Assembly (NCBI GenBank): GCA_963924555.1
Contig: OZ004586.1
Location: 7,212,501 to 7,276,500 of the forward strand
DNA from: Crambe crambe
Lineage: Eukaryota > Porifera > Demospongiae > Poecilosclerida > Crambeidae
Direction of reading: 5' to 3'
Length of the DNA: 64,000 nucleotides
This document shows positions 5,549 through 61,309 of the stretch, in pieces. The stretch's first letter is position 1. Every line of letters starts with the position of its first letter. The notes under the pieces are model-generated. The model was not told the DNA's origin. It did not search any database and saw nothing but the letters and a program-made list of their open reading frames with translations. Made by a program: the position numbers and the translations under genes.

Positions 5549-8500
5549 TTAACAAATTGAAGAGTCACTAGTTGATGACAATTCGAATTCAGAGCTTTCT
5601 GTAAAAGAGGGTGCATGTGTATAGTATAGTTGATCACATTCCAGAGCATTCTGTAAAAGAGGGTGCATGTTTTGGAGTGCCAGCATCTCCAGCAGGTCAG
5701 GACACGACTGGTACAGTGATGGCTCAATGTAGCCGGTATTTTTTAGAGGGATATGTCGCCACCCATATGAGGGTAGTGGTCTGGGAGAGTCATGTTGCTG
5801 TAGTACTTGGTGGCGATGGGGGAAGTGCAGAGTTCTGAGATCACAAAGGGATTGGGATCTCCTTAGGTTGTGTCGTGGAACAGCATCTCTTCGCAGAGCA
5901 CGGGCCATGCAGTCACGAAAGGGTGGATTACTTTTAACATCATGAGTAAAATACCTACTACTAGCAAAGTTTAAATTCTCCATGGAATGACGGAGAGAGT
6001 CATTTAGACTCATGATGAAATTGCAACAGAAATGAGGCATTGCGAATAGTATGTCATCAATGTTGTATATTCGTGCTCTTATTGACTTGATGGAGTTCAT
6101 CTCTGCTATGCAGCTCAAGTATTGGAAAGACCTCAACATCTCCAGTGGGTGAATTTTTGAACTTAAAGAGGTTGATGGTATCAATTCCAGGGTAACATGC
6201 TCAATGCTCCCAGCATTAGTACATACTCTACATCCAAAGTTAGTCTCTAATGTTGAAATAGTGGAGGAAGATAGTGCTGCCTGAAGTACTGGATAAAGCT
6301 CATAAGAGGTGAACAGTTCTGACCTTTTATATGGTAGTAGATCACCCAATGTTGGAAGTGACAGATCACCCGGGAGTGGCTTTGCAACATCACTAAGTAA
6401 AGCAGGACAACATTGAAGTACTAATTTTGTAAGAGTAGAACTAGTGGATATGATTTTGCATAATTCCTGCACACCTTTCTGAGTAGGAGTACAGCACACA
6501 AGACTGAATATTTCCAAGTTTATAATATGTTGAATGGATTGGTAAAGAAAACAGTCATCTTCACATGATTCAGAGAATTTTAAGGCAATACTTGTCAATC
6601 CTGGTGAACTTTTTGAAATCCAATCAGAAAGAACTGGTACTAATGGAGAAGAAATGCCACTTAGAGTGAGAGAGTTGATATGAAATTTGGGAAAGTACTT
6701 TGTGAGTGATGTAAGTTTGGATGATACATGCACACTGTGATGTACATCTATATGTAAGTGTTTAATAGTCCATAATGTTCCACCATTTGTTTTCTTTGTG
6801 TGCTCAGACAAACTATGCACCAACATCTCTAGAGATGTATGTATGTACACTAACTGGCACTGAATAGGAGCATGGACTAGACAATATCCAAAAACATACA
6901 CATCCAAGGGGTTGGACAAGTGTAAAAAAGTTTTGATGTCTAGTTTAAGTTCAGAAATGTCTCGAATTTCATATAAACAATGCATTGGGTAAGAAGAATC
7001 AAATCGGGATTGGGTCAGGATTCCTTGAAAGATTTTTTTAATGTAGCCCACAATACCACACAAGAACTGACCAAAGACTCTGAGGTGTGATATCACTAGT
7101 CCATATTGGGATACTATTTTAGAAGAAGCTTCATCTACTAAGTCAGAGTGACATGAAACATACCAAGCAGCAAGAAACTCTTGGATGCTGAGATGGAGGA
7201 AGGAGTAGGAGGTTGCTGCACCCTCACACACATACATCTCTTTGACTGCATTCATGAGACCTAAATGCTGGAAACCCTCTCCAACATCACTATCAGTAAA
7301 CACTAGCTGCACATCTTCCTTAAACAGACCACTGTAAGCTAGTTGACTAACTCTCTTAAGGTCTATGGAAACACTCTCTGGTAGATCTTTAAGACTACTG
7401 GGTACTTTGGAATGCTTGTCCCATTGCCCACTAGAAATCATGTGCCTCCTGATCAGAACTAGAGTAAGGGTGGTGTAGAGCTGTGTCATGGTTTTGGGCA
7501 TCAGCTCTCTGCTCTTTCTGATGTCTTTGTACACTTGTGCAATAATGGCACAATTGACAGGAATGTACATCAGTGAGTTAATGACAGGGTTAGAAAATAT
7601 AAAATCCTTAAAGTGAGCAAGAACCTTGGGTTCTGATTTGAAAGCTATTTCTGCAAACCTTACTTTGCACTCATCAGTGAAACCACACACCTCTACATGC
7701 CTGAAACCCTGAGGAAAGTAACTCTTAAGAGCAGATGGTCGACTAGTAACAAGACGAGTAGCTTTAGGTAAGCAAGAACCACTAATTAATTGGATTATCA
7801 ATCTATTCTCATCATACACCACAGAAGGCATCTCATCAAACCCATCCAGTATGAATAGGACACCCTCCCCCTCACACTTCCGCACCTCGTTCACTACTTT
7901 CCTTTGAAATCGTTCATCTTCATGATGTATCAGATCCTCCAAGGAAGTAGCATTCTGGACCCTTCTTTCACGAAGCTTTAACAGCAATACCATTTTATAG
8001 TGTTTTAATGAAGTCAAGGTGTCCCACTTCCTGCACAACTCCCAGGCCAAAGTGCTCTTACCAATGCCAGGGGGTCCTTCCACCAACACAAACCTTGTCC
8101 CTGAAGGTACAATGTCGTCCAATTCTAAAGGACTCTTTGCTCCTCTAATTTCATCCACATCACTATCCAGGGACGCTTTTGAGAACGTGTCGTCTTCATG
8201 AATGGCTCTACCTTTATCCACCAAAGCAAGGTTAATGAACTCACTACAAGGAGCAATGGAGAGTTTGTCATCACGAGCTACAGACTCATTTTCATAGTAT
8301 GGTTTGAGGTAATTATTTGCATATTGCATCAGTGCTGAGTGCTTAACTTTCCCTTTCCTTAGAGATTTACTGGAAATCTTCTTGGAATGTTTTTTGTGAT
8401 GAGTTTTCCTCTTGTATTTTTTCGTAGTGGTCACATGATCACTATCAAAGGAGTCAGAACTAGTGGCACTACTTGATGTAGATGATGGACTAGATGATGA

Positions 8501-8701
8501 GACTACATGTTGTCTTTTCTTACTTTTCTTGTGTTTGTCCAGTACCTTGTGTTTGTGTGTTCCTTTATGCTGCCTTGTGGAGGTAGAGGGTTTCTTATGT
8601 TTAGCTGGTGGAGTGTTGGAGGCAGAGGCAGACTGGTCAGAATGATCACTGTCACTGGACAAGGATGAGATATTCCTGTAATGGATAGAGTGCAGTGACA
8701 T
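5549..8701 (-). CDS. NLR-A: NACHT ATPase and LRR-like exon (Death-type gene)
   Basis: Start chosen at ATG 8701 (MSLHSIHYRN), conserved in all four copies; the frame is open further upstream. Counting from 8722: Ser/Lys/His-rich linker (about 10-130) with basic clusters, pre-NACHT motif EFINLALVDK (about 161), Walker A GPPGIGKST (216-224), Walker B LFILDGFDE (289-297), TSRPS (about 326), winged-helix-side motif FLHLSIQEFLAAWY (508-521), degenerate leucine-rich repeats (about 660-900), and an Arg/His-rich tail (RRSQSLCDLR). Family knowledge: NACHT proteins bind ATP and oligomerise as intracellular sensors. No stop or frameshift is present. Upstream minus-strand exons at 11861-11638 and 11302-11160 encode a Death domain, so the full product is probably Death-NACHT-LRR. 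Confidence 0.88.
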   Translation of the reverse strand: MSLHSIHYRNISSLSSDSDHSDQSASASNTPPAKHKKPSTSTRQHKGTHKHKVLDKHKKSKKRQHVVSSSSPSSTSSSATSSDSFDSDHVTTTKKYKRKTHHKKHSKKISSKSLRKGKVKHSALMQYANNYLKPYYENESVARDDKLSIAPCSEFINLALVDKGRAIHEDDTFSKASLDSDVDEIRGAKSPLELDDIVPSGTRFVLVEGPPGIGKSTLAWELCRKWDTLTSLKHYKMVLLLKLRERRVQNATSLEDLIHHEDERFQRKVVNEVRKCEGEGVLFILDGFDEMPSVVYDENRLIIQLISGSCLPKATRLVTSRPSALKSYFPQGFRHVEVCGFTDECKVRFAEIAFKSEPKVLAHFKDFIFSNPVINSLMYIPVNCAIIAQVYKDIRKSRELMPKTMTQLYTTLTLVLIRRHMISSGQWDKHSKVPSSLKDLPESVSIDLKRVSQLAYSGLFKEDVQLVFTDSDVGEGFQHLGLMNAVKEMYVCEGAATSYSFLHLSIQEFLAAWYVSCHSDLVDEASSKIVSQYGLVISHLRVFGQFLCGIVGYIKKIFQGILTQSRFDSSYPMHCLYEIRDISELKLDIKTFLHLSNPLDVYVFGYCLVHAPIQCQLVYIHTSLEMLVHSLSEHTKKTNGGTLWTIKHLHIDVHHSVHVSSKLTSLTKYFPKFHINSLTLSGISSPLVPVLSDWISKSSPGLTSIALKFSESCEDDCFLYQSIQHIINLEIFSLVCCTPTQKGVQELCKIISTSSTLTKLVLQCCPALLSDVAKPLPGDLSLPTLGDLLPYKRSELFTSYELYPVLQAALSSSTISTLETNFGCRVCTNAGSIEHVTLELIPSTSLSSKIHPLEMLRSFQYLSCIAEMNSIKSIRARIYNIDDILFAMPHFCCNFIMSLNDSLRHSMENLNFASSRYFTHDVKSNPPFRDCMARALRRDAVPRHNLRRSQSLCDLRTLHFPHRHQVLQQHDSPRPLPSYGWRHIPLKNTGYIEPSLYQSCPDLLEMLALQNMHPLLQNALECDQLYYTHAPSFTESSEFELSSTSDSSIC

Positions 8702-10375: not shown

Positions 10376-10409
10376 AGTGCAGTGTTGTTGGGAGGATCTG
10401 CAATGTCAC
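10376..10409 (-). CDS. Candidate 34-nt linker exon, NLR-A
   Basis: On the minus strand CTTTATGTAATAG|GTGACATTGC opens and ACTGCACT|gtaagt closes a 34-nt exon. Acceptor, donor and length are conserved in B, C and D. Entered in phase 1 it reads S-DIADPPNNTA. In A and C its inclusion would put the NLR exon out of frame (see findings), so here it may be skipped or vestigial. Confidence 0.45.
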
Positions 10410-10454
10410 CTATTACATAAAGAAAGAAGTACCATGATGAAAATAATTTACTTT

Positions 10455-10812
10455 TCGATCACCCACAAAATGTAAATTATATATGTAGTCTCCAGCCCAC
10501 CAGAATTCATTCACTTCATGTGCCTTTCCAAGAGCCTCAAAATAGTCACTATATAATATTGTGTGTATTTAATCCTGTTGAAGTGACTGCTATGGACACT
10601 TTGCTCTAGTGTAGTGTACAAGATAACTGGAAACTGCTTTGCGTGGAGACAGAAAGATGTCATTGACACAAATTCAAGACTGTCACATGTTTGTATGTTA
10701 GTAAGTGAAACTCAATCTTCATAATTACCACAAGCTATTCCACAACAATCTGGACAAAGAGTATGAGACTCTACATCCATACAGTGACTGAATCCAGATG
10801 GTGGTAAAGGAC
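10455..10812. pseudogene. Wrecked, palindromic CARD exon relic, module A
   Basis: Two damaged pieces of the CARD exon seen intact at 25337-25019 lie head to head. A minus-oriented 3'-end remnant (about 10455-10530) is followed by a plus-oriented remnant (about 10581-10812), recognisable by AGTGACTGCTATGGA, AACTGGAAACTGCTTTGCGT and GACAAAGAGTATGAGACTCT. Several internal deletions and stops are present, so no CARD can be made. Module C carries the same structure at about 40320-40760. Confidence 0.65.
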
Positions 10813-11159
10813 AAAGGTCATCTGTTATAAGACTGACTCAATCCCACATAACAATACCAATGTCCCTGTAAGGTGCTCTAGAGATGTTGGGAGTGATGAT
10901 ATCAAGTGCCCATAAAGACACTTTTAAGTGGACATGTCCACTATAATAGTAAATAGCATATCATGTACACACAAATATGTTCTATAGAAAATGGAGTGCT
11001 GCACTCAAGGTCGAAAGTGACAACTTATTCTAGGACATAATTAATGTTGGACCAATGCTACATCAACCTCAGTGTGCATGGTCTAAGTAATTTACAAAGG
11101 AGACCCTTGGAGTGTGTGAATGGCTACTCCTCAGTGTACTACCTAGTGCATATACTTAC

Positions 11160-11302
11160 TTCTTTCATTGGCAGTTCTTTGTATAAGCTCACAGACTTTT
11201 TCAGCAGTGTATGTATCTCCTCCTGCTAAACAAGCCTTCAAAAGGTTCTCATATGTTGCATCTGCTTTGATCTTTCCCTTCCAAACAAGTAAAACCTCTA
11301 TC
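11160..11302 (-). CDS. Death domain exon 2, NLR-A
   Basis: A TTCAG acceptor at 11303 and a gtaagt donor at 11159 bound a 143-nt exon reading IEVLLVWKGKIKADATYENL then LKACLAGGDTYTAEKVCELI. The W...ATYENLLKACL...AEKV pattern is the helix 5-6 end of a Death domain. It continues the frame of exon 1 (IIE-R) and ends in phase 1. Confidence 0.7.
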
Positions 11303-11357
11303 CTGAAGGATCATAGTTGGATATTCATGAAGTAATCCCAATCTTATGCCCACCACC

Positions 11358-11401
11358 CATAACAAACAAACAAACAAACAAACAAACAAACAAACAAACA
11401 A
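11358..11401. repeat. (AAAC)n microsatellite in the Death intron, module A
   Basis: About ten AAAC units, followed by a G9 run at 11420. Module C has a related, interrupted AAAC/AGAC tract at about 41231-41283. Confidence 0.8.
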
Positions 11402-11637
11402 CCATCAACAACAACATTTGGGGGGGGGGTGGCAAAGGTAGCATCAAAATTAGGCAGCAGGTTACTAAATATAAAGAGGAGGGAGGGGGAGGGGAATGCT
11501 CTGTCCCGGTCCCCCTAAATACACATTCTGGCTACATAACATGCTCAATTTTGTTTCCAACACATTTTATCTTTTTGAGGAGTTACATTGTTTGGGGACC
11601 TAATCTGTTATTTTATATCAGATGAAATTGTATTAAC

Positions 11638-11861
11638 CTCTCAATGATAGGTTGGGTAGGATCACGTCTGCCCACTTTTAGGATGTCTGAAATGTCAGTT
11701 CGCGTAAGATGCAATTGAACTGCCAACTTTGTCTCCCATTCAGTTATATGTTTGGCTATCTCAGGAAGATCACGATCAGAGTCCACAATCGTCTTCAACT
11801 TCCACTGCTTGGAAGGATCAATGAGTTTGTTGACATACTCCAAACACGACTCCTCACCCAT
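11638..11861 (-). CDS. Death domain exon 1 with start codon, NLR-A
   Basis: ATG at 11861 gives MGEESCLEYVNKLIDPSKQW, then the Death-domain core LPEIAKHITEWETKLAVQLH and LTRTDISDI, then DPTQPIIE and a gttaat donor at 11637. The pattern 'W..LA..L.L...DI..I....P' is typical of Death domains, which bind other Death domains of adaptors or caspase-recruiting proteins. Together with exon 2 it makes a complete domain of about 120 residues. Confidence 0.75.
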
Positions 11862-12286: not shown

Positions 12287-12925
12287 GTCTCTCCTCTTCC
12301 CTCCATACTCTTATTCTACACCTACTCCCTTCAAGGGGGCCTTAATAATAGCTAGTTGTCTCTCCTCTTCCCTCCATACTCTCATTCTACACCTACTCCC
12401 TTCAAGGGGGCCTTAATAATAGCTAGTTGTCTCTCCTCTTCCCTCCATACTCTTATTCTACACCTACTCCCTTCAAGGGGGCCTTAATAATAGCTAGTTG
12501 TCTCTCCTCTTCCCTCCATACTCTCATTCTACACCTACTCCCTTCAAGGGGGCCTTAATAATAGCTAGTTGTCTCTCCTCTTCCCTCCATACTCTTATTC
12601 TACACCTACTCCCTTCAAGGGGGCCTTAATAATAGCTAGTTGTCTCTCCTCTTCCCTCCATACTCTCATTCTACACCTACTCCCTTCAAGGGGGCCTTAA
12701 TAATAGCTAGTTGTCTCTCCTCTTACCTCCATACTCTTATTCTACACCTACTCCCTTCAAGGGGGCCTTAATAATAGCTAGTTGTCTCTCCTCTTCCCTC
12801 CATACTCTTATTCTACACCTACTCCCTTCAAGGGGGCCTTAATAATAGCTAGTTGTCTCTCCTCTTCCCTCCATACTCTTATTCTACACCTACTCCCTTC
12901 AAGGGGGCCTTAATAATAGCTAGTT
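12287..12925. repeat. 71-bp tandem array, nine copies
   Basis: Units start at 12287, 12358, 12429, 12500, 12571, 12642, 12713, 12784 and 12855, each exactly 71 bases and nearly identical. One site alternates TCTTATT and TCTCATT in units 1-6 (T,C,T,C,T,C) and is T in units 7-9, which points to a 142-bp dimer as the amplified unit. There are no unique spacers, so it is not a CRISPR array. Confidence 0.95.
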
Positions 12926-13669
12926 GGCCCACCTCATTGCTTGCAATAAAATTTATTAGAGAAAAAAAAAATCTCGGAATGGGACAAAAAGTATTGGCCT
13001 ATAGGATATCGGATGTCCAACTAAATTCCACATAACTCTCCTTGTATGTTTCTCAAGTGTAGCAGGATAGTATGAAGTTCCACTACCTTTTTGTGAGGGG
13101 TTTTGACAACACTCTCCCTAGTGGGAATCTGATCCATCACCTTCTGAACCCTGTGATTCCAAAATGGGAACTATTTCCTTCATCTCTTCTACTCACCACA
13201 CCTCACACCCAAAGGCTAGACTAGTCAAGCTAGGACTGCTTAGTACATCAAGCTACAGCAGACCTTGATCTATAAACCCACCTTTCAAATAGCAACTCTT
13301 GATCACTGAATGAATCGCGAACGATAGAAGAACATATCTTACCCTCTAGTTTTGCTGACTTTGCACAAACAATATTTCAATATTACTTTATGCTCTAATA
13401 GAGAAGATTTGTGGGTGCATCCGATTCTCTTCTCCTCTCGTCTAGAGGTCCTTTTGCTAACCAAAGCATTGCTTGAGGTAAGTCATGCATAAAGTTTGAC
13501 CTACCTCCCGTGTCATTCCAGGCACTCACAAATCTCCTTCCCCTCGTATGGTACTCACCTTTACCCCCCACCACCACCCTCTTGTCTGATATTAATATCA
13601 TGTTAGTTACCCATGGCCATGCTCCATCCCTTCCCCCTCCCCTTAAATGTCATCTGCATTTTCTTTGTC
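12926..13669. other. Spacer with module-end repeat
   Basis: No gene seen. The part at about 13140-13560 (with GTCCTTTTGCTAA and GCTTGAGGTAAGTC) recurs near 25640-25960, 48300-48460 and 62120-62460, always just ahead of PDZ-LIM sequence, and marks the end of each NLR module. Confidence 0.5.
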
Positions 13670-20446: not shown

Positions 20447-23400
20447 CTAATATTTGTAGTATAGTTGATCACATCTCAGAACATTGTGTAAAAGAGGGTG
20501 CATGTTTTGGAGTGCCTGCATCTCCAGCAGGTCAGGACATGACTGGTACAGTGATGGTTGAATGTGGTCAGTATTTTTTAGAGGGATATATCGCCACCCA
20601 TAGCTAGGATGAAAGTGATATCTTTTTAAAGGTAGTGGTCTGGGAGAGTCATGTTGCTGTAGTAGTTGGTGGCGATGGGGGAAGTGCAGAGTTCTGAGAT
20701 CACAGAGGGACTGGGATCTCCTTAGGTTGTGTCGTGGAACAGCAGGATCTCTTCGCAGAGCACGGGCCATGCAGTCACGAAAGGGTAGATGATTTTTAAC
20801 ATCACAGAAGGACTCGGATCTCAGATCACAGGCCATGCAGTCATGAAAGGGTTGAAAGGGTAGATGATTTTTAACATCATAAATCAAATACCCACCACTA
20901 GTAAAGTTTAAATTCTCCATGGAATGACGGAGAGAGTCATTTAGACTCATGATGAAATTGCAACAGAAATGAGGCATTGCTAATAGTATGTCATCAATGT
21001 TGTGTATTTGTGCTTTTATTGACTTGATGGAGTTCATCTCTGCTATCCAGCTCAAGTATTGAAAAGACCTCAACATTTTCAGTGGGTGAATATTTAAACT
21101 TAAAGAGGTTGATGGTATCAATTCCAGGGTAACATGCTCAATGCTCCCAGCATTAGTACATACTCTATATCCAAAGTTAGTCACTAATTTTGAAATAGTG
21201 GAGGAAGATAGTGCTGCCTGAAGCACTGGACGAAGCTCATAAGAGGTGGGATAACATTGAAGTCGTAATTCTGTGAGAGTAGAACTAGTGGATATGATTT
21301 TGCATAATTCCTGCACACCTTTCTGATGAGTAAAACACACAAGACTGAATTTTTTCAAGTTTGTAATATGTTGAATGGATTGGTAAAGTAAATAGTCATC
21401 TTCACATGATTCAAAGAATGTTAAGGCAATACTTGTCAATCCTGGTGAACTTTTTGAAATCCAATCAGAAAGAACTGGTACTAATGGAGAAGAAATGTGA
21501 TAAAGAGCGAGAGAGTTGATATGAAAGTACTTTGCGAGTGATGTAAGTTTGGATGATACATGCACACTGTGATGTACATCTATAAGTAAGTCCTCAATAG
21601 TCCCTAATGTTCCACCATTTGTTTTCTTTGTGTGCTCAGACAAACTATGTACCAACATCTCTAGAGATGTATCTATCTCCACTAACCACCACTGAATAGG
21701 AACATGGACTAGACAACATCCAAAAACATACATATCCAAGGGGTTGGACAAGTGTAAAAGAGAAGTTTTGATGTCTAGTTTAAGTTCAGGAATGTCTCGA
21801 GTTTCATATAAACAATACATTAGGTAAGAAGAAGTAGATGGGGGTAGGGTCAGGATTCCTTGAAAGATTTTTTCATTGTAGCCCACAGTACCACACAAGA
21901 ACTGACCAAAGACTCTGAGGTGTGGTGTCACTTGTCCAAATTGGGATACTATTTTAGAAGAAGCTTCATCTACTAAGTCAGAATGATATGAAACATACCA
22001 AGCAGCAAGAAACTCTTGGATGCTGAGATGGAGGAAGGAGTAGGAGGTTGCTGCACCCTCACACACATACATCTCTTTGACTGCATTCATGAGACCTAAA
22101 TGCTGGAAACCCTCTCCAACATCACTATCAGTAAACACTAGCTGCACATCTTCCTTAAACAGACCACTGTAAGCTAGTTGACTAACTCTCTTAAGGTCTA
22201 TGGCAACTCTCTTAAGGTCTATGGAATCACTCTTTTGTAGATCTTCAAGACTACTGGGTACTCTTGTATCCTCGTCCCATTGCCCACTAGAAATCATGTG
22301 CCTCCTGATCAGAACTAGAGTAAGGGTGGTGTAGAGCTGTGTCATGGTTTTGGGCATCAGCTCTCTGCTCTTTCTGATGTCTTTGTACACTTTTGCTATA
22401 ATGGCACAATTGACAGGAATGTACATCAGTGAATTGATAATGGGGTTAGAAAGCATAAATTTCTTAAAGTGAGCGAGAATTTTTGGCTCCAATTCGAAAG
22501 ATTTTTCTACAAATTTTTTTCTGCACTCATCAGTGAAACCAAGCACCTCTACATGCCTGAAACCCAGAGGAAAGAATTTATGAGGTACAGAAGGTCGACT
22601 AGTAACAAGACGAGTAGCTTTAGGTAAGCAAGAACCTCTAATTAGTCGCATTATCAAACTGTTCTCTTTATAAATCACTGAAGGCATCTCGTCAAACCCA
22701 TCCAGTATGAATAGGACACCCTCCCCCTCACATTTCCGCAACTCACTCACTACTTTCCTTTGAAACTGTTTATCTTCATGATATATCAGGTCCTCCAAGG
22801 AAGTAGCATTCTGGACCCTTCTTTCACGAAGCTTTAGCAGCAATACCATTTTATAGTGTTTCAATGAAGTCAAGGTGTCCCACTTCTTGCACAACTCCCA
22901 GGCCAAAGTGCTCTTACCAATGCCAGGGTGTCCTTCCACCAACACAAACCTTGTCTCTGAAGGTACAATGTCGTCCAATTCTAAAGGACTCTTTGCTCCT
23001 CTAATTTCATCCACACCACTATCCAGGGACGCTTTTGAGAATGTGTCGTCTTCATGAATGGTCCTACCTTTATCCACCAAAGCAAGGTCAATGAACTCAC
23101 TACAAGGAGCAATGGAGAGTTTGTCATCACGAGGTACAGACTCCTTTTCATAGTATGGTTTGAGGTAATTATTTGCATATTGCATCAGTGCTGAGTGCTT
23201 AACTTTCCCTTTCCTTAGAGATTTACTGGAAATCTTCTTGGAATGTTTTTTGTGATGAGTTTTCTTCTTGTGTTTTTTCGTAGTGGTCACATGATCACTA
23301 TCAAAGGAGTCAGAACTAGTGGCACTACTTGATGTAGATGATGGACTAGATGATGAGACTACACGTTGTCTTTTCTTACTTTTCTTATGTTTGTCCAGTA

Positions 23401-23536
23401 CCTTGTGTTTGTGTGTTCCAGAGGGTTTCTTACGTTTAGCTGGTGGAGTGTTGGAGGCAGAGGAAGATTGGTCAGAATGATCACTGTCACTGGACAAGGA
23501 TGAGTCATTCCTGTAATGGATAGAGTGCAGTGACAT
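20447..23536 (-). CDS. NLR-B: NACHT ATPase and LRR-like exon (CARD-type gene)
   Basis: Start at the conserved ATG 23536; the frame stays open to at least 23557 but begins there with GTG. Domain order is as in NLR-A. It is the most divergent copy. Walker A is GHPGIGKST, with His for Pro but still fitting GxxxxGK[ST]; Walker B is LFILDGFDE; the middle region reads RKKFVEKSFELEP where A, C and D agree on another text. An 8-codon duplication (IDLKRVA/IDLKRVS) lies near 22185-22225, and the tail has a duplicated FHDCMA/FRDCMA segment near 20770-20860. The LRR insert is nearly absent (see findings). No stops. The CARD exon is at 25337-25019. Confidence 0.88.
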   Translation of the reverse strand: MSLHSIHYRNDSSLSSDSDHSDQSSSASNTPPAKRKKPSGTHKHKVLDKHKKSKKRQRVVSSSSPSSTSSSATSSDSFDSDHVTTTKKHKKKTHHKKHSKKISSKSLRKGKVKHSALMQYANNYLKPYYEKESVPRDDKLSIAPCSEFIDLALVDKGRTIHEDDTFSKASLDSGVDEIRGAKSPLELDDIVPSETRFVLVEGHPGIGKSTLAWELCKKWDTLTSLKHYKMVLLLKLRERRVQNATSLEDLIYHEDKQFQRKVVSELRKCEGEGVLFILDGFDEMPSVIYKENSLIMRLIRGSCLPKATRLVTSRPSVPHKFFPLGFRHVEVLGFTDECRKKFVEKSFELEPKILAHFKKFMLSNPIINSLMYIPVNCAIIAKVYKDIRKSRELMPKTMTQLYTTLTLVLIRRHMISSGQWDEDTRVPSSLEDLQKSDSIDLKRVAIDLKRVSQLAYSGLFKEDVQLVFTDSDVGEGFQHLGLMNAVKEMYVCEGAATSYSFLHLSIQEFLAAWYVSYHSDLVDEASSKIVSQFGQVTPHLRVFGQFLCGTVGYNEKIFQGILTLPPSTSSYLMYCLYETRDIPELKLDIKTSLLHLSNPLDMYVFGCCLVHVPIQWWLVEIDTSLEMLVHSLSEHTKKTNGGTLGTIEDLLIDVHHSVHVSSKLTSLAKYFHINSLALYHISSPLVPVLSDWISKSSPGLTSIALTFFESCEDDYLLYQSIQHITNLKKFSLVCFTHQKGVQELCKIISTSSTLTELRLQCYPTSYELRPVLQAALSSSTISKLVTNFGYRVCTNAGSIEHVTLELIPSTSLSLNIHPLKMLRSFQYLSWIAEMNSIKSIKAQIHNIDDILLAMPHFCCNFIMSLNDSLRHSMENLNFTSGGYLIYDVKNHLPFQPFHDCMACDLRSESFCDVKNHLPFRDCMARALRRDPAVPRHNLRRSQSLCDLRTLHFPHRHQLLQQHDSPRPLPLKRYHFHPSYGWRYIPLKNTDHIQPSLYQSCPDLLEMQALQNMHPLLHNVLRCDQLYYKY

Positions 23537-24635: not shown

Positions 24636-24669
24636 AGTGCAGTGTTGTCTGGAGGATCTGCAATGCCAC
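24636..24669 (-). CDS. Candidate 34-nt linker exon, NLR-B
   Basis: Bounded by a TTTCTTTATGTAATAG acceptor and a gtaagt donor. Entered in phase 1 after the CARD exon it reads GGIADPPDNTA and leaves phase 2, which matches the TTTAG acceptor 43 bases before the NLR-B ATG. Confidence 0.5.
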
Positions 24670-25018: not shown

Positions 25019-25337
25019 CTTTTCCAAGAGTCTCATACTCTTTATCCAGTATCTTCACAATGTCCTCATACTTCTTCATATTGCTGTGGAAGTACTTGAC
25101 TAGCTTGTGGTAGTTGTCAGGGTTGAGCTCCACTTTCTCCTTGATAGCAGTCACCAACACACCAGCTTTATCAACACGCGACAGTCTCGAATTTGGGTCA
25201 ATGACATCATCATAGTCGTCTTTTTTGAGAAAACCTTCTTCATGGAGATAGTGTGTAATGTCTCTGTCTCCACGCAAAGCAGTTTCCAGTTGTCTTGTAC
25301 ACTTGATCAAAGTGCTGTATTCCCTGGACTCCTCCAT
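25019..25337 (-). CDS. CARD exon with start codon, NLR-B
   Basis: ATG at 25337 gives MEESREYSTLIKCTRQLE, then ITHYLHEEGFLKKDDYDDV, SRLSRVDKAGVLVTAIKEKV, YHKLVKYFHSN and YEDIVKILDKEYETLGK, ending at a gtacgt donor (25018). Six predicted helices, the 'YL..EGFL...DYD.V' turn and 'DKAGVLV..I..K' match the CARD fold. CARDs bind other CARDs of adaptors or caspases. The exon is 319 nt and ends in phase 1. A GTG three codons upstream is in frame, but ATG is preferred. Confidence 0.8.
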
Positions 25338-26154: not shown

Positions 26155-26335
26155 GGGGTCCTCTTGGTAGTCCCCTGGGTAAGGTGTGGCATCCTGAACA
26201 GAAACCTCTTCTTCAAGACAGTACCATCACAAGGAAACAGTATATGAACATCCGAGGGATATAGTTCAGCCCTCATCTTTGATGAGGAACGTTCTCAGAC
26301 TTTCCACTCTTGCCATTCTAGGAGTAAGTCCATAT
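26155..26335 (+). pseudogene. LIM1 exon remnant, copy B'
   Basis: Same worn LIM1 text as at 13677-13850 (GPLGSPLGKVWHPEQ), with later Cys residues lost. It is the downstream PDZ-LIM scrap of module B. Confidence 0.5.
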
Positions 26336-35387: not shown

Positions 35388-38300
35388 TCAATTTTTGTAT
35401 TTTTTGTACAGTTGATCATATTTCAGAGCTTTCTGTAAAAGAGGGTGCATGTTTTGGAGTGCCTGCATCTCCAGCAGGTCAGGACATGACTGGTACAGTG
35501 ATGGCTGATCGAGAACAAATATATGCTTTTTTAGTGGGATATGTCGCCACCCATATGAGGATAGTGGTCTGGGAGAGTCGTGTTGTTGTAGTAGTTGGTG
35601 GCGATGGGGGAAGTGCAGAGTTCTGAGATCACAGAGGGATTGGGATCTCCTTAGGTTGTGTCGTGGAACAGCAGGATCTCTTCGCAGAGCACGGGCCATG
35701 CAGTCACGAAAGGGTGGATCATTTTTAACATCATAAGTAAGGTCTAAATTCTCCATGGAATGATGGAGAGAGTCATTTAGACTCATGATGAAATTGCAAC
35801 AGAAATGAGGCATTGCAAATAGTATGTCATCAATTTGTAATATTCCTACTGTTATTGACTTGATGGAGTTCATCTCTGCTATGCAGCTCAAGTATTGGAA
35901 AGACCACAACATCTCTAGTGGGTGAATTTTATGTGATTTCAGGGTAACGTGCTGAATGCTCCCAGCATTAGTACATACTCTACATCCAAAGCTAGTCTCT
36001 AATGTTGAAATAGTGGAGGAAGATAGTGCTGCCTGAAGTACTGGATAAAGCTCATAAGAGGGGAACAGTTCTGACCTTTCATATGGTAGTAGATCACCCA
36101 ATGTTGGAAGTGACGGATCACCCGCAGGATGACATTGAAGTACTAATTTTGTAAGAGTAGAACTAGTGGATATGATTTTGAATAATTCCTGCACACCTTT
36201 CTGAGTAGGAGTACGGCACACAAGACCGAATTCTTCCAAGTTTGTAATATGTTGAATGGATTGGAAAAGTAAACAGTCATCTTCACATGATTCAAAGAAT
36301 ATTAAGGCAATACTTGTCAATCCTGGTGAACTTTTTGAAATCCAATCAGAAAGAACTGGTACTAATGGAGAAGAAATACCATTTAGAGTGAGATAGTCGA
36401 TATGAAATTTGGGAAAGTACTTTGTGAGTGATGTAAGTTTGGATGATACATGCACACTGTGATGTACATCTATTTGTAAGTATTTAATAGTCCCTAATGT
36501 TCCACCATTTGTTTTCTTTGTGTGCTCAGATAAACTATGCACCAACATCTCTAGAGATGTATATATGAGCACTAACTGCCACTGAATAGGAGCATGGACT
36601 AGACAATATCCAAAAACATACACATCCAAGGGGTTTAACAAGCTTATTATAAGCTTAAGCTTAAGCTTGGACAAGTGTATATGTAAAAGAGAAGTTTTGA
36701 TGTCTAGTTTAAGTTCAGAAATGTCTCGAATTTCATATAAACAATGCAGTAGGTAAGGATCAAGCAGGCATCGGGTCAGGATTGCTTGAAAGAATTTTTC
36801 ATTGTAGCCCACAATACCACACAAGAACTGACCAAAGACTCTGAGGTGTGGTGTCACTTGTCCAAGTCCAGATTGGGATACTATTTTAGAAGAAGCTTCA
36901 TCTACTAAGTCAGAATGACATGAAACATACCAAGCAGCAAGAAACTCTTGGATGCTGAGATGGGGGAAGGAGTAGGAGGTTGCTGCACCCTCACACACAT
37001 ACATCTCTTTGACTGCATTCATGAGACCTAAATGCTGGAAACCCTCTCCAACATCACTATCAGTAAACACTAGCTGCACATCTTTCTTAAACAGACCACT
37101 GTAAGCTAGTTGACTAACTCTCTTAAGGTCTATGGAAACACTCTCTGGTAGATCTTTAAGACTACTGAGTACTCTTGTATCCTCGTCCCATTTCCCACTA
37201 GAAATCATGTGCCTCCTGATCAGAACTAGAGTAAGGGTGGTGTAGAGCTGTGTCATGGTTTTGGGCATCAGCTCTCTGCTCTTTCTGATATCTTTGAACA
37301 CTTGTGCAATAATGGCACAATTGACAGGAATGTACATAAGTGAGTTAATGACAGGGTTAGAAAATATAAAATCCTTAAAGTGAACAAGAACCTTGGGTTC
37401 TGATTTGAAAGCTGTTTCTGCAAACCTTACTTTGCACTCATCAGTGAAACCACACACCTCTACATGCCTGAAACCCTGAGGAAAGTAACTCTTAAGAGCA
37501 GATGGTCGACTAGTAACAAGACGAGTAGCTTTAGGTAAGCAAGAACCACTAATTAATTGGATTATCAATCTATTCTCATCATGCACCACAGAAGGCATCT
37601 CATCAAACCCATCCAGTATGAATAGGACACCCTCCCCCTCACACTTCCGCACCTCGTTCACTACTTTCCTTTGAAATCGTTTATCTTCATGATGTATCAG
37701 ATCCTCCAAGGAAGTAGCATTCTGGACCCTTCTTTCATGAAGCTTTAACAGAAGTACCGTTTTATAGTGTTTCAATGAAGTCAAGGTGTCCCACTTCCTG
37801 CACAACTCCCAGGCCAAAGTGCTCTTACCAATGCCAGGGGGTCCTTCCACCAACACAAACCTTGTCCCTGAAGGTACAATGTCGTCCAATTCTAATGGAC
37901 TCTTTGCTCCTCTAATTTCATCCACATCACTATCCAGGGACGCTTTTGAGAACGTGTCGTCTTCATGAATGGTCCTACCTTTATCCACCAAAGCAAGGCT
38001 AATGAACTCACTACAAGGAGCAATGGAGAGTTTGTCATCACGAGCTACAGGCTCATTTTCATAGTATGGTTTGAGGTAATTATTTGCATATTGCATCAGT
38101 GCTGAGTGCTTAACTTTCCCTTTCCTTAGAGATTTACTGGAAATCTTCTTGGAATGTTTTTTGTGATGAGTTTTCTTCTTGTGTTTTTTCGTAGTGGTCA
38201 CATGATCACTATCAAAGGAGTCAGAACTAGTGGCACTACTTGATGTAGATGATGAACTAGATGATGAAACTACATGTCTTTTCTTACTTTTCTTGTGTTT

Positions 38301-38462
38301 GTCCAGTACCTTGTGTTTGTAAGTTCCTTTATGCTGCCTTGTGGAGGCAGAAGGTTTCTTACGTTTAGCTGGAGTGTTGGAGGCAGAGGCAGACTGGTCA
38401 GAATGATCACTGTCACTGGACAAGGATGAGACATTCCTGTAATGGATAGAGTGCAGTGACAT
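35388..38462 (-). CDS. NLR-C: NACHT ATPase and LRR-like exon (Death-type gene)
   Basis: Start at conserved ATG 38462; the frame is open to ATG 38483 as in A. Walker A GPPGIGKST, Walker B LFILDGFDE, TSRPS, and FPHLSIQEFLAAWY (Leu to Pro in the usual FLHLS motif). The LRR-side region has a short insertion (LSKLKLKLIISLL) produced by repeated AAGCTTAAGCTT text at about 36645-36670. The tail with RRSQSLCDLR is kept. No stops. N-terminal Death exons lie at 41621-41401 and 41180-41038. The ATPase half is almost identical to A and D. Confidence 0.88.
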   Translation of the reverse strand: MSLHSIHYRNVSSLSSDSDHSDQSASASNTPAKRKKPSASTRQHKGTYKHKVLDKHKKSKKRHVVSSSSSSSTSSSATSSDSFDSDHVTTTKKHKKKTHHKKHSKKISSKSLRKGKVKHSALMQYANNYLKPYYENEPVARDDKLSIAPCSEFISLALVDKGRTIHEDDTFSKASLDSDVDEIRGAKSPLELDDIVPSGTRFVLVEGPPGIGKSTLAWELCRKWDTLTSLKHYKTVLLLKLHERRVQNATSLEDLIHHEDKRFQRKVVNEVRKCEGEGVLFILDGFDEMPSVVHDENRLIIQLISGSCLPKATRLVTSRPSALKSYFPQGFRHVEVCGFTDECKVRFAETAFKSEPKVLVHFKDFIFSNPVINSLMYIPVNCAIIAQVFKDIRKSRELMPKTMTQLYTTLTLVLIRRHMISSGKWDEDTRVLSSLKDLPESVSIDLKRVSQLAYSGLFKKDVQLVFTDSDVGEGFQHLGLMNAVKEMYVCEGAATSYSFPHLSIQEFLAAWYVSCHSDLVDEASSKIVSQSGLGQVTPHLRVFGQFLCGIVGYNEKFFQAILTRCLLDPYLLHCLYEIRDISELKLDIKTSLLHIHLSKLKLKLIISLLNPLDVYVFGYCLVHAPIQWQLVLIYTSLEMLVHSLSEHTKKTNGGTLGTIKYLQIDVHHSVHVSSKLTSLTKYFPKFHIDYLTLNGISSPLVPVLSDWISKSSPGLTSIALIFFESCEDDCLLFQSIQHITNLEEFGLVCRTPTQKGVQELFKIISTSSTLTKLVLQCHPAGDPSLPTLGDLLPYERSELFPSYELYPVLQAALSSSTISTLETSFGCRVCTNAGSIQHVTLKSHKIHPLEMLWSFQYLSCIAEMNSIKSITVGILQIDDILFAMPHFCCNFIMSLNDSLHHSMENLDLTYDVKNDPPFRDCMARALRRDPAVPRHNLRRSQSLCDLRTLHFPHRHQLLQQHDSPRPLSSYGWRHIPLKKHIFVLDQPSLYQSCPDLLEMQALQNMHPLLQKALKYDQLYKKYKN

Positions 38463-40260: not shown

Positions 40261-40294
40261 AGTGCAGTGTTGTCTGGAGGATCTGCAATGCCAC
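40261..40294 (-). CDS. Candidate 34-nt linker exon, NLR-C
   Basis: Same acceptor (TGTAATAG) and gtaagt donor as in A, B and D; reads S-GIADPPDNTA in phase 1. As in A, including it would break the frame into the NLR exon. Confidence 0.45.
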
Positions 40295-40319
40295 CTATTA
40301 CACAAAGAAAGAAGTACCA

Positions 40320-40760
40320 TGATGAAAATAATTTACTTTTCGATCACCCACAAAATATGTAGCCTCCAGCTACATATTCCTCCCCACCGCCAGAACTCAT
40401 TCACTTCCTGTGCCTTTCCAAGTGTCAAAATGGTCACTATAATATTGTGTGTGTTGAAGTGACTGCTATGGACACTTTGCTCAAGTGTACAAGACAACTG
40501 GAAACTGCTTAGTGTGGAGACAGAGACATTGCACACTAAGAGAGTTTTCTCAAGAAAGACGTCATTGACATAAATTCAAGACTGTCACATGTTTGTATGT
40601 TAGTAAGTGAAGCTCAATCTTAACTACCACAAGCCATTCCACAGCAATATGAAGAAGTAGCTATGAGGACATTATGAATCTGGACAAAGAGTATGAGACT
40701 CTACATCCATACAGTGACTGAATCCAGGTGGTGGTAAAGGACAAAGGTCATCTATTATAA
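40320..40760. pseudogene. Wrecked, palindromic CARD exon relic, module C
   Basis: A minus-oriented scrap of the CARD 3' end (about 40340-40430) is followed by a plus-oriented, deletion-ridden copy (about 40457-40755). AAGTGTACAAGACAACTGGA, GGAGACAGAGACATT, CCACAGCAATATGAAGAAG and GACAAAGAGTATGAGACTCT are retained and line up with the reverse complement of 25019-25340. It is better preserved than the relic in A but has stops and at least four internal gaps. Confidence 0.7.
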
Positions 40761-41037: not shown

Positions 41038-41180
41038 TTCTTTCATTGGTGGTTCTTTGTATAAGCTCACAGACTTTTTCAGCAGTGTATGTATCTCCTC
41101 CTGCTAAACAAGCCTTCAAAAGGTTCTCATATGTTCCATCTGTTTTGATCTTTCCCTTCCAAACAAGTAAAACCTCTATC
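41038..41180 (-). CDS. Death domain exon 2, NLR-C
   Basis: 143 nt, CTTCAG acceptor and gtaagt donor. Reads IEVLLVWKGKIKTDGTYENL then LKACLAGGDTYTAEKVCELI, the C-terminal helices of a Death domain, ending in phase 1 exactly as in A. Confidence 0.7.
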
Positions 41181-41400: not shown

Positions 41401-41621
41401 CTCTCAATGATAGGTTGGGTAGGATCACTTCTGCCCACTTTCTTGATGTCTGAAATGTCAGTTCGTGTAAGATGCAATTGAACTGCCAACTTTGTCTCCC
41501 ATTCAGTTATATGTTTGGCTATCTCAGGAAGATCACGATCAGAGTCCACTATCTCCTTCAACTTCCACTGCTTGGAAGGATCAATGAGCTTGTTGACATA
41601 TTTTTTCAACTCATCAGCCAT
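41401..41621 (-). CDS. Death domain exon 1 with start codon, NLR-C
   Basis: ATG at 41621 gives MADELKKYVNKLIDPSKQW, LPEIAKHITEWETKLAVQLH, LTRTDISDI and DPTQPIIE with a gttagt donor at 41400. One residue shorter than A at the N-terminus (MADELKK against MGEESCLE) and otherwise nearly the same. Confidence 0.75.
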
Positions 41622-48768: not shown

Positions 48769-48867
48769 TGATGAGTGAAGAATTCAAAAGAGCTACATGA
48801 ATTAATTAGCATGAAAGGATGTTCAGTATTGGAATAGTTTAACAAAAGAGACACTTTTAGTGTTTTT

Positions 48868-56492: not shown

Positions 56493-59400
56493 CTATAGGC
56501 CATTACATCCCAGAGCTTTCTGTAAAAGAGGGTGCATGTCTTGGAGTGCCTGCATCTCGAGCAGGTCAGGACATGACTGGTACACTGTTGGCTTCATGAC
56601 AAGAGAAGGGAAACGAAAAATATGTTTTCTTGCCCTGGGAGGGATATGTCGCCACCCATAGCTAGGATAAGAGTGAGAGTCGTGTTGTTGTTGTAGTAGT
56701 TGGTGGCGATGGGGAAAGTGCAGAGTTCTGAGATCACAGAGGGACTGGGATCTCCTTAGGTTGTGTCGTGGAACAGCAGGATCTCTTTGCAGAGCATGGG
56801 CCATGCAGTCACGAAAGAACGGATTTTTAAAAAGGTATTTAAAATAAGTGATGTCTAAATTCTTCATGGAATGATGGAGAGAGTCATTTAGACTCATGAT
56901 GAAATTGCAACAGAAGTGAGGCATTGCTAATAGCATATCATCAATGTCGCCTATTTGTACTGTCATTGACTTGATGGAGTTCATCTCTGCTATGCAGCTC
57001 AAGTATTGGAAAGAGCTTAATACCACCAGTGGGTGATATGATCTCATGTCCAGGGTCACACACTCAATGCTTCCAGCATTAGTACATACTCTATACCCAA
57101 AGTTAGTCTCTAATGTTGAAATAGTGGAGGAAGATAGTGCTGCCTGAAGAACTGGATAAAGATCATAAGAGGCGAGCAGTTGTTTATATAGTTGACCCTG
57201 TATATGTGCTTCAAATTCCTCCAGTGATTGCTTTGCAGCAAAAACAGCACGACGATTTTTAAGTACTAATTCTTTAAGAGTAGAACTAGTGGATATGAAT
57301 TTGCATAATTCCTGCACACCTTTCTGAGTAGGAGTACGGCATACAAGACTGAAGTTTGTAATATGTTGAATGAATTGGTAAAGTAAATAGTCATCTTCAC
57401 ATGATTCAGAGAATTTTAAGGCAATACTTGTCAATCGTGGTGAACATTTTGAAATCCAATCAGAAAGAACTGGTACTAATGGAGAAGAAATGCCATTTAG
57501 AGTGAGAGAGTTGATATGAAATTTGGGTAAGTACTTTATAAGTTTGGATGATACATGCACACTGTGATGTACATCTATATGTAAGTCCTTAATAGTCCCT
57601 AATGTTCCACCATTTGTTTTCTTTGTGTGCTCAGACAAACTATGCACTAAAATCTCTAGAGATGTATATATTTCAACACACTGGCACAGAATAGGAACAT
57701 GGACTAGACAATATCCAAAAACATACACATCCAAGGGGGTGGACAAGGATACAATAGCATTTTTGATATCTAGTGAGTGCTTAGAGATGTCTTGGATTTC
57801 ATATAAACAATGCACTAGGTAAGAATCAAGTAGGGATTTGGTCAGAATTCCTTGAAAGAATTTTTCATTGTAGCCCACAATACCGCACAAGAACTGACCA
57901 AAGACTCTGAGGTGTGGTGTCACTAGTCCAGATTGGGATACTATTTTAGAAGAAGCTTCATCTACTAAGTCAGAATGACATGAAACATACCAAGCAGCAA
58001 GAAACTCTTGGATGCTGAGATGGAGGAAGGAGTAGGAGGTTGCTGCACCCTCACACACATACATCTCTTTGACTGCATTCATGAGACCTAAATGCTGGAA
58101 ACCCTCTCCAACATCACTATCAGTAAACACTAGCTGCACATCTTCCTTAAACAGACCACTGTAAGCTAGTTCACTAACTCTCTTAAGGTCTATGGAAACA
58201 CTCTCTGGTAGATCTTTAAGACTACTGGGTACTTTGGAATGCTTGTCCCATTTCCCACTAGAAATCATGTGCATCCTGATCAGAACTAGAGTAAGGGTGG
58301 TGTAGAGCTGTGTCATGGTTTTGGGCATCAGCTCTCTGCTCTTTCTGATGATGTCTTTGTACACTTGTGCAATAATGGCACAATTGACAGGAATGTACAT
58401 CAGTGAGTTAATGACAGGGTTAGAAAATATAAAATCCTTAAAGTGAGCAAAAACCTTGGGTTCTGATTTGAAAGCTATTTCTGCAAACCTTACTTTGCAC
58501 TCATCAGTGAAACCAAGTACCTCTACATGCCTGAAATCCTGAGGAAAGTAACTCTTAAAAGCAGATGGTCGACTAGTAACAAGACGAGTAGCTTTAGGTA
58601 AGCAAGAACCACTAATTAATTGCATTATCAATCTGTTCTCATCATGCACCACAGAAGGCATCTCATCAAACCCATCCAGTATGAATAGGACACCCTCCCC
58701 CTCACACTTCCGCACCTCGTTCACTACTTTCCTTTGAAATCGTTTATCTTCATGATGTATCAGATCCTCCAAGGAAGTAGCATTCTGGACCCTTCTTTCT
58801 CGAAGCTTTAACAGCAATACCATTTTATAGTGTTTTAATGAAGTCAAGGTGTCCCACTTCCTGCACAACTCCCAGGCCAAAGTGCTCTTACCAATGCCAG
58901 GGGGTCCTTCCACCAACACAAACCTTGTCCCTGAAGGTACAATGTCGTCCAATTCTAATGGACTCTTTGCTCCTCTAATTTCATCCACATCACTATCCAG
59001 GGACGCTTTTGAGAACGTGTCATCTTCATGAATGGCTCTACCTTTATCCACCAAAGCAAGGTTAATGAACTCACTACAAGGAGCAATGGAGAGTTTGTCA
59101 TCACGAGCTACAGGTTTATTCTGGTAATATGGCTTGAGATATTGATTTGTATATCGTACCAACATAGGCTCATTTCTTTTCTTATTTCCCTTCAAAGATT
59201 TACTGGAAATTTTCTTGGAATGTTTTTTGTGGTGTTTCCTTTCATGTCTCTTTTTTGTAGTGGTCACGTGATCACTATCAAAGGAGTCAGAACTAGTGGC
59301 ACTACTTGATGTAGATGATGAACTAGATGCACGTTGTCTTTTCTTATTTCTCTTATGTTTGCCCCGTACCTTGTGTTTGTAAGTTCCTTTGTGCTGCCTT

Positions 59401-59525
59401 GTGGAGGCAGAGGGTTTCTTACGTTTAGCTGGTGGAGTGTTGGAGGCAGAGGCAGACTGGTTAGCACTATCACTGTCACTGAACAAGGATGAGTCATTCC
59501 TGTAATGGATAGAGTGCAGTGACAT
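56493..59525 (-). CDS. NLR-D: NACHT ATPase and LRR-like exon (CARD-type gene)
   Basis: Start at conserved ATG 59525. Walker A GPPGIGKST, Walker B LFILDGFDE, TSRPS, FLHLSIQEFLAAWY, LRR-like region, RRSQSLCDLR tail. The ATPase part is almost the same as in A and C, but the basic linker (KRHERKHHKKHSKKI, GNKKRNEPMLVRYTNQYLKP) and an LRR-side insert (RRAVFAAKQSLEEFEAH) are its own. An extra codon (KDIIRKS) comes from a GATGAT repeat near 58350. No stops. The CARD exon is at 61159-60841. Confidence 0.88.
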   Translation of the reverse strand: MSLHSIHYRNDSSLFSDSDSANQSASASNTPPAKRKKPSASTRQHKGTYKHKVRGKHKRNKKRQRASSSSSTSSSATSSDSFDSDHVTTTKKRHERKHHKKHSKKISSKSLKGNKKRNEPMLVRYTNQYLKPYYQNKPVARDDKLSIAPCSEFINLALVDKGRAIHEDDTFSKASLDSDVDEIRGAKSPLELDDIVPSGTRFVLVEGPPGIGKSTLAWELCRKWDTLTSLKHYKMVLLLKLRERRVQNATSLEDLIHHEDKRFQRKVVNEVRKCEGEGVLFILDGFDEMPSVVHDENRLIMQLISGSCLPKATRLVTSRPSAFKSYFPQDFRHVEVLGFTDECKVRFAEIAFKSEPKVFAHFKDFIFSNPVINSLMYIPVNCAIIAQVYKDIIRKSRELMPKTMTQLYTTLTLVLIRMHMISSGKWDKHSKVPSSLKDLPESVSIDLKRVSELAYSGLFKEDVQLVFTDSDVGEGFQHLGLMNAVKEMYVCEGAATSYSFLHLSIQEFLAAWYVSCHSDLVDEASSKIVSQSGLVTPHLRVFGQFLCGIVGYNEKFFQGILTKSLLDSYLVHCLYEIQDISKHSLDIKNAIVSLSTPLDVYVFGYCLVHVPILCQCVEIYTSLEILVHSLSEHTKKTNGGTLGTIKDLHIDVHHSVHVSSKLIKYLPKFHINSLTLNGISSPLVPVLSDWISKCSPRLTSIALKFSESCEDDYLLYQFIQHITNFSLVCRTPTQKGVQELCKFISTSSTLKELVLKNRRAVFAAKQSLEEFEAHIQGQLYKQLLASYDLYPVLQAALSSSTISTLETNFGYRVCTNAGSIECVTLDMRSYHPLVVLSSFQYLSCIAEMNSIKSMTVQIGDIDDMLLAMPHFCCNFIMSLNDSLHHSMKNLDITYFKYLFKNPFFRDCMAHALQRDPAVPRHNLRRSQSLCDLRTLHFPHRHQLLQQQHDSHSYPSYGWRHIPPRARKHIFRFPSLVMKPTVYQSCPDLLEMQALQDMHPLLQKALGCNGL

Positions 59526-60685: not shown

Positions 60686-60719
60686 AGTGCAATGTTGTTC
60701 GGATGATCTGCAATGCCAC
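60686..60719 (-). CDS. Candidate 34-nt linker exon, NLR-D
   Basis: TGTAATAG acceptor and gtaagt donor as in the other copies; reads GGIADHPNNIA in phase 1 and leaves phase 2, compatible with the NLR-D exon. Confidence 0.5.
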
Positions 60720-60840: not shown

Positions 60841-61159
60841 CTTTTCCAAGAGTCTCATACTCTTTATCCAGTATCTTCACAATGTCCTCATACTTCTTCA
60901 TATTGCTGTGGAAGTACTTGACTAGCTTGTGGTAGTTGTCAGGGTTGAGCTTCACTTTCTTCTTGATTGCAGTCACCAACACACCAGCTTTATCAACACG
61001 TGACAGTCTTGAATTTGGGTCCAGGACATCATCATAGTCATCTGTCTTGAGAAAACCTTCCTTATGGAGATAGTGTACAATGCCTCTGTCTCCATCCAAA
61101 GCAGTTTCCAGCTGTTCAGTACACTCAATCAAAGTGCCGTATTCCCTGGACTCTTCCAT
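60841..61159 (-). CDS. CARD exon with start codon, NLR-D
   Basis: ATG at 61159 gives MEESREYGTLIECTEQLE, IVHYLHKEGFLKTDDYDDV, SRLSRVDKAGVLVTAIKKKV, YHKLVKYFHSN and YEDIVKILDKEYETLGK, with a gtacgt donor at 60840. It is 319 nt, the same length and phase as in B, with about a dozen substitutions spread over the domain and no gaps, as expected for a maintained fold. Confidence 0.8.
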
Positions 61160-61309
61160 AGCAGTTACTTCAGCAGGATTAAGTGGTTAAGTCTGAGATT
61201 ATCAGCAAGATTAAGTGGTTAAGTCTGAAACTATAAGTCCACACACAATATTATATAGTGACTACTTTAAACACACACACACACTTCAGCAGATATATGT
61301 TACATGAGT

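What the first reader, a model, noticed from the sequence alone, without database searches (positions are those of the whole stretch)
10376..11861. Death-for-CARD replacement in NLR-A, with the old CARD left as a palindromic wreck
Modules B and D carry an intact one-exon CARD upstream of the 34-nt exon. At the corresponding place modules A and C carry a CARD relic made of two damaged pieces in opposite orientation, and further upstream a complete two-exon Death domain that B and D lack. The same NACHT-LRR body is thus attached to two different death-fold domains within one tandem array, and the wreck shows that CARD was present before in the A/C lineage. An inverted duplication that destroyed the CARD, with Death exons taking over, is the simplest reading. 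I know of no described case with the intermediate still visible.
Basis: partly seen in the sequence, partly recalled or inferred. Interest (0 to 1): 0.87.

Follow-up and report, generated by a model that had tools for sequence, protein, structure and literature searches.

The report
Swappable effector cassettes in sponge NLRs
In one gene cluster of a sponge, the same kind of immune-receptor body is joined to different death-signalling domains, and the remains of an older, flipped-over domain are still visible where one type seems to have replaced another.

Summary
Modules B and D have an intact one-exon CARD; A and C have a two-exon Death domain plus a CARD relic in the intron before the 34-nt exon. 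The relic is a near full-length inverted CARD abutting a short sense stub of the same CARD.

Lengths match Crambe crambe chromosome 6 (inferred). In 276 kb held around the window, 8 of 8 Death cassettes carry this relic and 0 of 3 CARD-I modules do; genome-wide 12 copies match, all on one contig. A diverged CARD-II occupies other modules, 4 of 8 with a fossil of the CARD-I splice donor.

A's body is closest to a CARD-II gene, B's too, and D's NACHT exon is 95% identical to a Death module's; tests reject Death or CARD-I bodies as one clade. Best reading: CARD-I came first; one inversion disabled it in a cassette that acquired (or already had) Death; cassettes and bodies then recombined near the 34-nt exon. 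The cassette types read end in splice phase 1, so swaps stay in frame. Expression, and the order of Death gain and CARD loss, are not shown.

The parts
11638..11861 (-). Module A Death exon 1 (ATG at 11861)
   Evidence: open frame, donor AG|GTTAAT; 95.5% DNA identity to module C over 200 bp
11160..11302 (-). Module A Death exon 2, ends phase 1
   Evidence: CAG|G acceptor, GTAAGT donor; 97.2% to module C; Pfam Death match runs over both exons, E 0.01, below cut-off
10541..10811 (+). Module A inverted CARD-I relic with CARD 5' flank
   Evidence: colinear minus-strand matches to B and D CARD; 0 of 500 shuffles
10429..10540 (-). Module A sense stub: end of CARD-I exon plus its intron
   Evidence: aligned with module M7113 and K7101; marginal on its own in A (1-2 of 500 shuffles)
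10376..10409 (-). Module A 34-nt linker exon
   Evidence: conserved splice sites; 34 or 43 nt (both 1 mod 3) in 17 of 18 copies looked at
5549..8675 (-). Module A NACHT exon (body)
   Evidence: Pfam NACHT E 7.4e-22
25019..25337 (-). Module B CARD-I exon (ATG to donor)
   Evidence: open, phase 1; Pfam CARD E 0.0011, below cut-off; CARD-like model
24636..24669 (-). Module B 34-nt exon
20447..23510 (-). Module B NACHT exon; 91.7% to CARD-II module M7288 through the 34-nt exon
41401..41621 (-). Module C Death exon 1
41038..41180 (-). Module C Death exon 2
   Evidence: Pfam Death over both exons E 0.006, below cut-off
40427..40741 (+). Module C inverted CARD-I relic
   Evidence: 341-column match to CARD B, E 1.2e-43; 0 of 500 shuffles
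40314..40426 (-). Module C sense CARD-I stub and intron
   Evidence: 0 of 500 shuffles
40261..40294 (-). Module C 34-nt exon
35388..38436 (-). Module C NACHT exon (start placed by analogy with A)
   Evidence: NACHT hit
60841..61159 (-). Module D CARD-I exon
61241..61268 (-). Module D CARD 5' flank that is found inverted in the relics (marks a D-like source)
   Evidence: 28 bp, 96.4% to A 10539-10566; not shared by B or K7101
60686..60719 (-). Module D 34-nt exon
56493..59499 (-). Module D NACHT exon; 95% to the body of Death module M7165

Best explanation
The locus is part of a tandem NLR array in which an N-terminal effector cassette and a receptor body (34-nt linker exon, NACHT exon) behave as separate recombining units. 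The ancestral cassette was CARD-I. In one cassette an inversion with breakpoints in the CARD exon's 3' end and its 5' flank, duplicating about 50 bp in inverted orientation, disabled CARD-I; that cassette carries a two-exon Death domain. It then multiplied and was placed on different bodies by unequal recombination or gene conversion near the 34-nt exon, as were CARD-I and CARD-II cassettes. Because CARD-I, CARD-II (two copies read) and Death exon 2 all end in phase 1, any of them can be spliced to the linker exon in frame. The expected result is that similar sensors feed into CARD-type or Death-type signalling. Shown: relic, shared junction, phases, incongruent histories. Inferred: splicing, signalling, and the order of events.
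For: 8 of 8 Death cassettes in the held 276 kb carry the relic between Death exon 2 and the body, 0 of 3 CARD-I modules do (M7113 and M7146 are a recent duplicate, so seven distinct). The stub/inverted-flank junction aligns in all eight. Genome-wide 12 inverted relics matched, all on C9; 11 of the 12 close Death exon pairs on the minus strand of C9 have one. Of 8 held CARD-II units, M7081 and M7181 keep a 28-bp, 96% copy of the CARD-I donor and intron start beside the 34-nt exon, M7288 and M7511 a 31-bp, 97% copy; the other four gave no such hit, one of them has a 13-bp match by eye. Bodies: Death rows not one clade (AU p 3.1e-29; 1.1e-3 without M7165), B and D not one clade (p 3.5e-12). A's body is closer to CARD-II M7181 than to C in 10 of 11 body windows, then identity to M7181 falls to 53-65% in the cassette; B to M7288 90-99% over nine windows, then 59-72%. 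Phase 1 ends: (CARD-I, Death), by eye for two CARD-II copies. Death reading frame open in 8 of 8.
Against: Which direction each swap went is not resolved. Gene conversion of bodies would give the same incongruence as moving cassettes. On the body tree the Death label needs 4 changes but well-supported branches force only 2, and 296 of 500 shuffled labelings do as well, i.e. the label is simply not clustered. Death/CARD dN/dS is only modestly low (Death pairs 0.09-1.08, A to C 0.42; CARD-I 0.24-0.50). Only 5 of the 8 held Death cassettes sit on an adjacent linker exon and a full NACHT exon: M7170 has an altered exon-2 acceptor and no adjacent linker exon, M7147's NACHT is truncated, M7202 lies behind a CARD-II. 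A further inverted CARD piece at C9 7,841,418, right beside a linker exon, seems to have another junction (positions only), so inversion may not be unique.
Confidence: 0.72

Rival explanations
1. One reading: in one gene lineage (A/C) an inverted duplication destroyed CARD and Death exons took over afterwards.
For: Shared relic, sense stub plus inverted copy; CARD-I with the linker exon also exists far away at C9 8.45 Mb, so that arrangement is old.
Against: A, C and the other Death bodies are not one clade; A's body is nearest to a CARD-II gene. Order of loss and gain untested.
Confidence: 0.15
2. Death first: the ancestor had Death and CARD as alternative or tandem N-terminal exons; CARD was inverted in some copies and Death deleted in others.
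For: The flank upstream of Death in A (13191-13947) matches the flank upstream of CARD in B (25673-26416) at 74%, so both could derive from a longer unit; M7195 has CARD-II with Death upstream.
Against: 0 of 3 held CARD-I modules show a Death match upstream; the intron between relic and Death exon 2 is found only in the 12 relic-bearing copies, apart from one 66-bp piece on C8.
Confidence: 0.2
3. The inverted CARD is a chance insertion of a neighbour's exon into a Death gene's intron, unrelated to replacement.
For: An inverted exon beside a related array could arise by ectopic insertion; the inverted piece carries D's 5' flank, not B's or K7101's.
Against: The sense stub of the same CARD exon and its intron next to the linker exon means CARD-I stood in sense at this very place.
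Confidence: 0.08
4. Assembly artefact or chance similarity.
For: Only the marginal stub score in A and M7094.
Against: Eight copies, seven of them diverged from each other, share it; 0 of 500 shuffles for A and C.
Confidence: 0.01

Closest known systems
Zebrafish NLR-B30.2 (FISNA-NACHT) family, Open Biol 2016, PMC4852459 (passages read)
   Same: Large NLR family with NACHT in one big exon and N-terminal units on single exons; the paper reports exon shuffling of N-terminal repeats between NACHT groups, and gene conversion.
   Different: In the passages read the shuffled N-terminal units are about 30-aa peptide repeats, and death-fold domains belong to NACHT groups 1 and 2; here whole death-fold domains of different families change between near-identical bodies, with the flipped predecessor still present.
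Sponge NLRC / NLRD / NLRX repertoires (Dysidea avara and other sponges, PMC12909245; abstract, section 3.5 and the first part of section 4 read)
   Same: CARD-NACHT-LRR and Death-NACHT-LRR genes in sponges; trees group by species more than by category; it cites 15 NLRC in Amphimedon within a clade holding NLRX and NLRD.
   Different: That work counts 1 NLRC in C. crambe; here CARD-like exons lie within 8 kb upstream of 16 of 25 NACHT places in this array alone (the two CARDs scanned score below Pfam's cut-off). No intermediate or fossil was described in the parts read.
Staggered-break inversions of Drosophila (PMC5080602, PMC7584159: seen in a search listing only; mechanism recalled)
   Same: Inversion with short inverted duplication at breakpoints.
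   Different: Those are large polymorphic inversions; here a few hundred bases inside one gene.

Membership tests
NLR (NACHT-type STAND receptor) | NACHT domain over the curated cut-off | tested here: met
   A body 78.4 bits against 26.7; A, B, C, D all listed over the cut-off
NLR (NACHT-type STAND receptor) | C-terminal leucine-rich repeats | tested here: inconclusive
   No LRR family among the 22 listed for A at E <= 1; other bodies not scanned
NLRC (CARD at N terminus) | CARD domain | tested here: inconclusive
   Pfam CARD is the top hit, E 0.0011, 19.3 bits against cut-off 23.9; model resembles CARD structures, best E 0.069; no PDB sequence match at E 0.1
NLRC (CARD at N terminus) | CARD and NACHT in one transcript | not testable with these tools
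   Only splice phases fit
NLRD (Death at N terminus) | Death domain | tested here: inconclusive
NLRD (Death at N terminus) | Death and NACHT in one transcript | not testable with these tools
   Phase 1 end fits the linker exon
CARD pseudo-exon (relic) | Homology beyond chance with loss of frame | tested here: met
   for homology; stops within the inverted protein hits, e.g. module C; indels

The most novel reading that the evidence does not exclude
The array is a natural plug-and-socket system: a phase-1 linker exon acts as a fixed socket at which whole death-fold effector domains (CARD-I, CARD-II, Death) are exchanged among near-identical NACHT bodies, so receptors are re-wired to another signalling pathway within a few per cent of divergence. 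The antisense CARD-I sequence kept in Death-gene introns might, in addition, act on CARD-I transcripts as complementary RNA (untested).
Probability: 0.45. Interest if true: 0.78.

Novelty: new variant of a known kind. Interest (0 to 1): 0.6.

Why it matters
How immune receptors change their output domain is usually inferred from end states. Here a probable start state, the disabled predecessor and the replacements lie side by side in one array with the recombination joints readable, so rate, direction and selection of effector swaps can be measured directly. It also suggests that cut-off based surveys undercount CARD-type NLRs in this sponge.

Tried and rejected
Rejected: an equal-sized palindrome (inverted-repeat search finds nothing in A or C); a single Death lineage of bodies; chance. 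Led nowhere: PDB sequence searches with Death and CARD profiles (0 matches each at E 0.1); naming the genome from protein records (no organism names in the rows listed). The species comes from lengths only: C9 8,843,633 and C21 5,671,324 bp against chromosomes of 8.84 and 5.67 Mb, total 143.14 against 143.20 Mb, Crambe crambe, PMC12166358, passages read; contig counts differ (119 held, 124 published). M7113's second fragment first looked like noise and proved to be the sense stub. dN/dS is too variable to prove constraint. The first body tree used 16 of 19 bodies (three short ones dropped); the tests used 13, with M7195 unlabelled. Absence from print rests on searches of an open-licence library (one returned no paper at all); Yuen et al. 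2014 on Amphimedon was not read, only seen cited. PMC12258605 (fungal NLRs) was seen in passages and not used.

Full report
What was checked. Window modules A-D are four NACHT genes on the minus strand. The CARD exons of B and D are open with a phase-1 donor; the Death exons of A and C are open, splice to each other in frame and also end in phase 1; the 34-nt exon is present in all four, and the NACHT acceptor in A, B and D, the three that I read. In 17 of 18 copies in held DNA the linker exon is 34 or 43 nt, both 1 mod 3; one copy did not fit my pattern.

The relic. Matches between the A/C intron and the CARD exon are all on the opposite strand and colinear over the exon, with no shuffle reaching the score (0 of 500 each). 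Aligning eight related introns and the CARD-I modules shows two parts: next to the 34-nt exon the old CARD-I intron with the last ~17 nt of the CARD exon in sense, and abutting it an inverted copy that starts in a D-like CARD 5' flank, runs through the CARD exon and ends some 34 nt inside its intron. About 50 bp around the donor therefore occurs in both orientations. An inversion with staggered breaks gives this directly (mechanism recalled); an inverted duplication followed by deletion is also possible. The stub is strong in M7113, passes in C and M7063, and is marginal in A and M7094 taken alone.

How general it is. The window lies at 7,212,501-7,276,500 of contig C9. In the held stretches (276 kb contiguous and 50 kb farther on) there are eight Death exon pairs and all eight have the relic; three intact CARD-I modules have neither Death nor relic; eight CARD-II exons were found, one of which (M7195) has a relic and Death farther upstream. 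Genome-wide the relic query matches 12 inverted copies, all on C9; one (7,314,034) has no Death hit, and one of 12 close minus-strand Death pairs on C9 (7,872,557) has no relic hit. Besides these, a partial inverted CARD (7,841,418-7,841,657, plus strand, two stops) lies directly beside a linker-exon match (7,841,366-7,841,415) and so seems to have another junction; I have no letters for it. Of 25 NACHT places between 7.0 and 7.6 Mb, 15 have a CARD-like exon within 8 kb upstream, 8 a Death exon, 1 both, 1 neither; of 6 other places on C9, 2 have CARD, 2 Death, 2 neither; of 71 places on other contigs, 7 have a CARD-like exon of this kind and none this Death (limits in Tried and rejected).

CARD-I as the first occupant. 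Four of eight held CARD-II units (M7081, M7181, M7288, M7511) keep a near-exact 28-31-bp copy of the CARD-I donor and intron start beside the linker exon, where it has no evident use; in the two CARD-II copies that I read, a separate phase-1 donor follows the CARD-II exon (by eye), and one of these (7198) has only a 13-bp match to the CARD-I donor. A CARD-I module with the linker exon also lies more than 1 Mb away (8.45 Mb; CARD 79% identical). This favours CARD-I before Death and CARD-II, but the junction alone does not prove direction.

Bodies and cassettes have separate histories. In the NACHT-body tree the Death label needs four changes (two forced by well-supported branches; three for the label without M7165), no better than shuffled labels, and the data reject one Death clade (p 3.1e-29, or 0.001 without the odd module M7165) and one CARD-I clade for B and D (p 3.5e-12). 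Pairwise (window profile): A against CARD-II module M7181 is 94.3% over 4.6 kb up to window position 10446, where the cassette begins; A's cassette, from 10497 on, is 96% to M7165; B's body is 91.7% to CARD-II module M7288 up to window 24697; D is 95% to M7165 up to window 59511, at the NACHT exon's start; C's Death exon 1 and upstream part is 97.8-99.6% to M7110 against 88.9% in the body. Moving cassettes or body conversion would both do this. The joints of A and B lie within 90 bp of the linker exon; that of D lies at the NACHT exon.

What it probably does. By analogy with animal NLRs (established knowledge, not tested), the NACHT body oligomerises on sensing and the N-terminal death-fold domain recruits the matching adaptor or caspase. 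Exchanging CARD for Death would redirect the output while keeping the sensor. Death frames are open in 8 of 8 held copies, but A-to-C dN/dS is 0.42 and values scatter from 0.09 to 1.08, so constraint is suggested, not proven. Five of the eight held Death cassettes sit on adjacent linker and full NACHT exons (A, C, M7061, M7092, M7110).

Compared with what is known. Sponge NLRC and NLRD genes are published (PMC12909245, parts read), as is exon shuffling of N-terminal peptide repeats between zebrafish NLR groups (PMC4852459, passages read). I found no paper describing an inverted death-fold relic between effector and NACHT exons (searches; open-licence library only). I file this as a new variant of a known kind.

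Noticed in passing
window 48823-50625 (-): A fifth, broken body: NACHT-gene C-terminal frames split over four ORFs, without a NACHT domain hit.
   Followed up: no
window ~12300-12925: About nine tandem copies (by eye) of a ~71-bp unit inside module A's Death cassette, between Death exon 1 and the shared upstream flank; M7165 has fewer.
   Followed up: partly
C9:7195687-7206500 (L023, L024): One NACHT body with CARD-II next to it and the relic plus Death cassette farther upstream: either a second replacement caught midway or a deletion joining two modules.
   Followed up: partly
C9:7841366-7841657: A partial inverted CARD with two stops directly beside a linker-exon match, with a junction unlike the other relics: perhaps an independent inversion (positions only).
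   Followed up: partly
C9:7110-7132 kb and 7144-7165 kb (L015, L017, L018, L020): Near-identical blocks (same relic match scores, identical Death exons, two identical NACHT bodies), so a recent segmental duplication or a haplotype duplicate in the assembly.
   Followed up: no
C9:7869461 and C9:8378170: Two NACHT places with this Death type nearby but with no match to the relic or the linker exon; possible donors of the Death cassette.
   Followed up: partly
window 33281-33688 (+): ORF with a LIM-like cysteine pattern (by eye) between modules B and C.
   Followed up: no
window 51927-55980 (+) and 30193-31479 (-): ORF clusters that look like remains of mobile-element genes between modules (by eye).
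   Followed up: no
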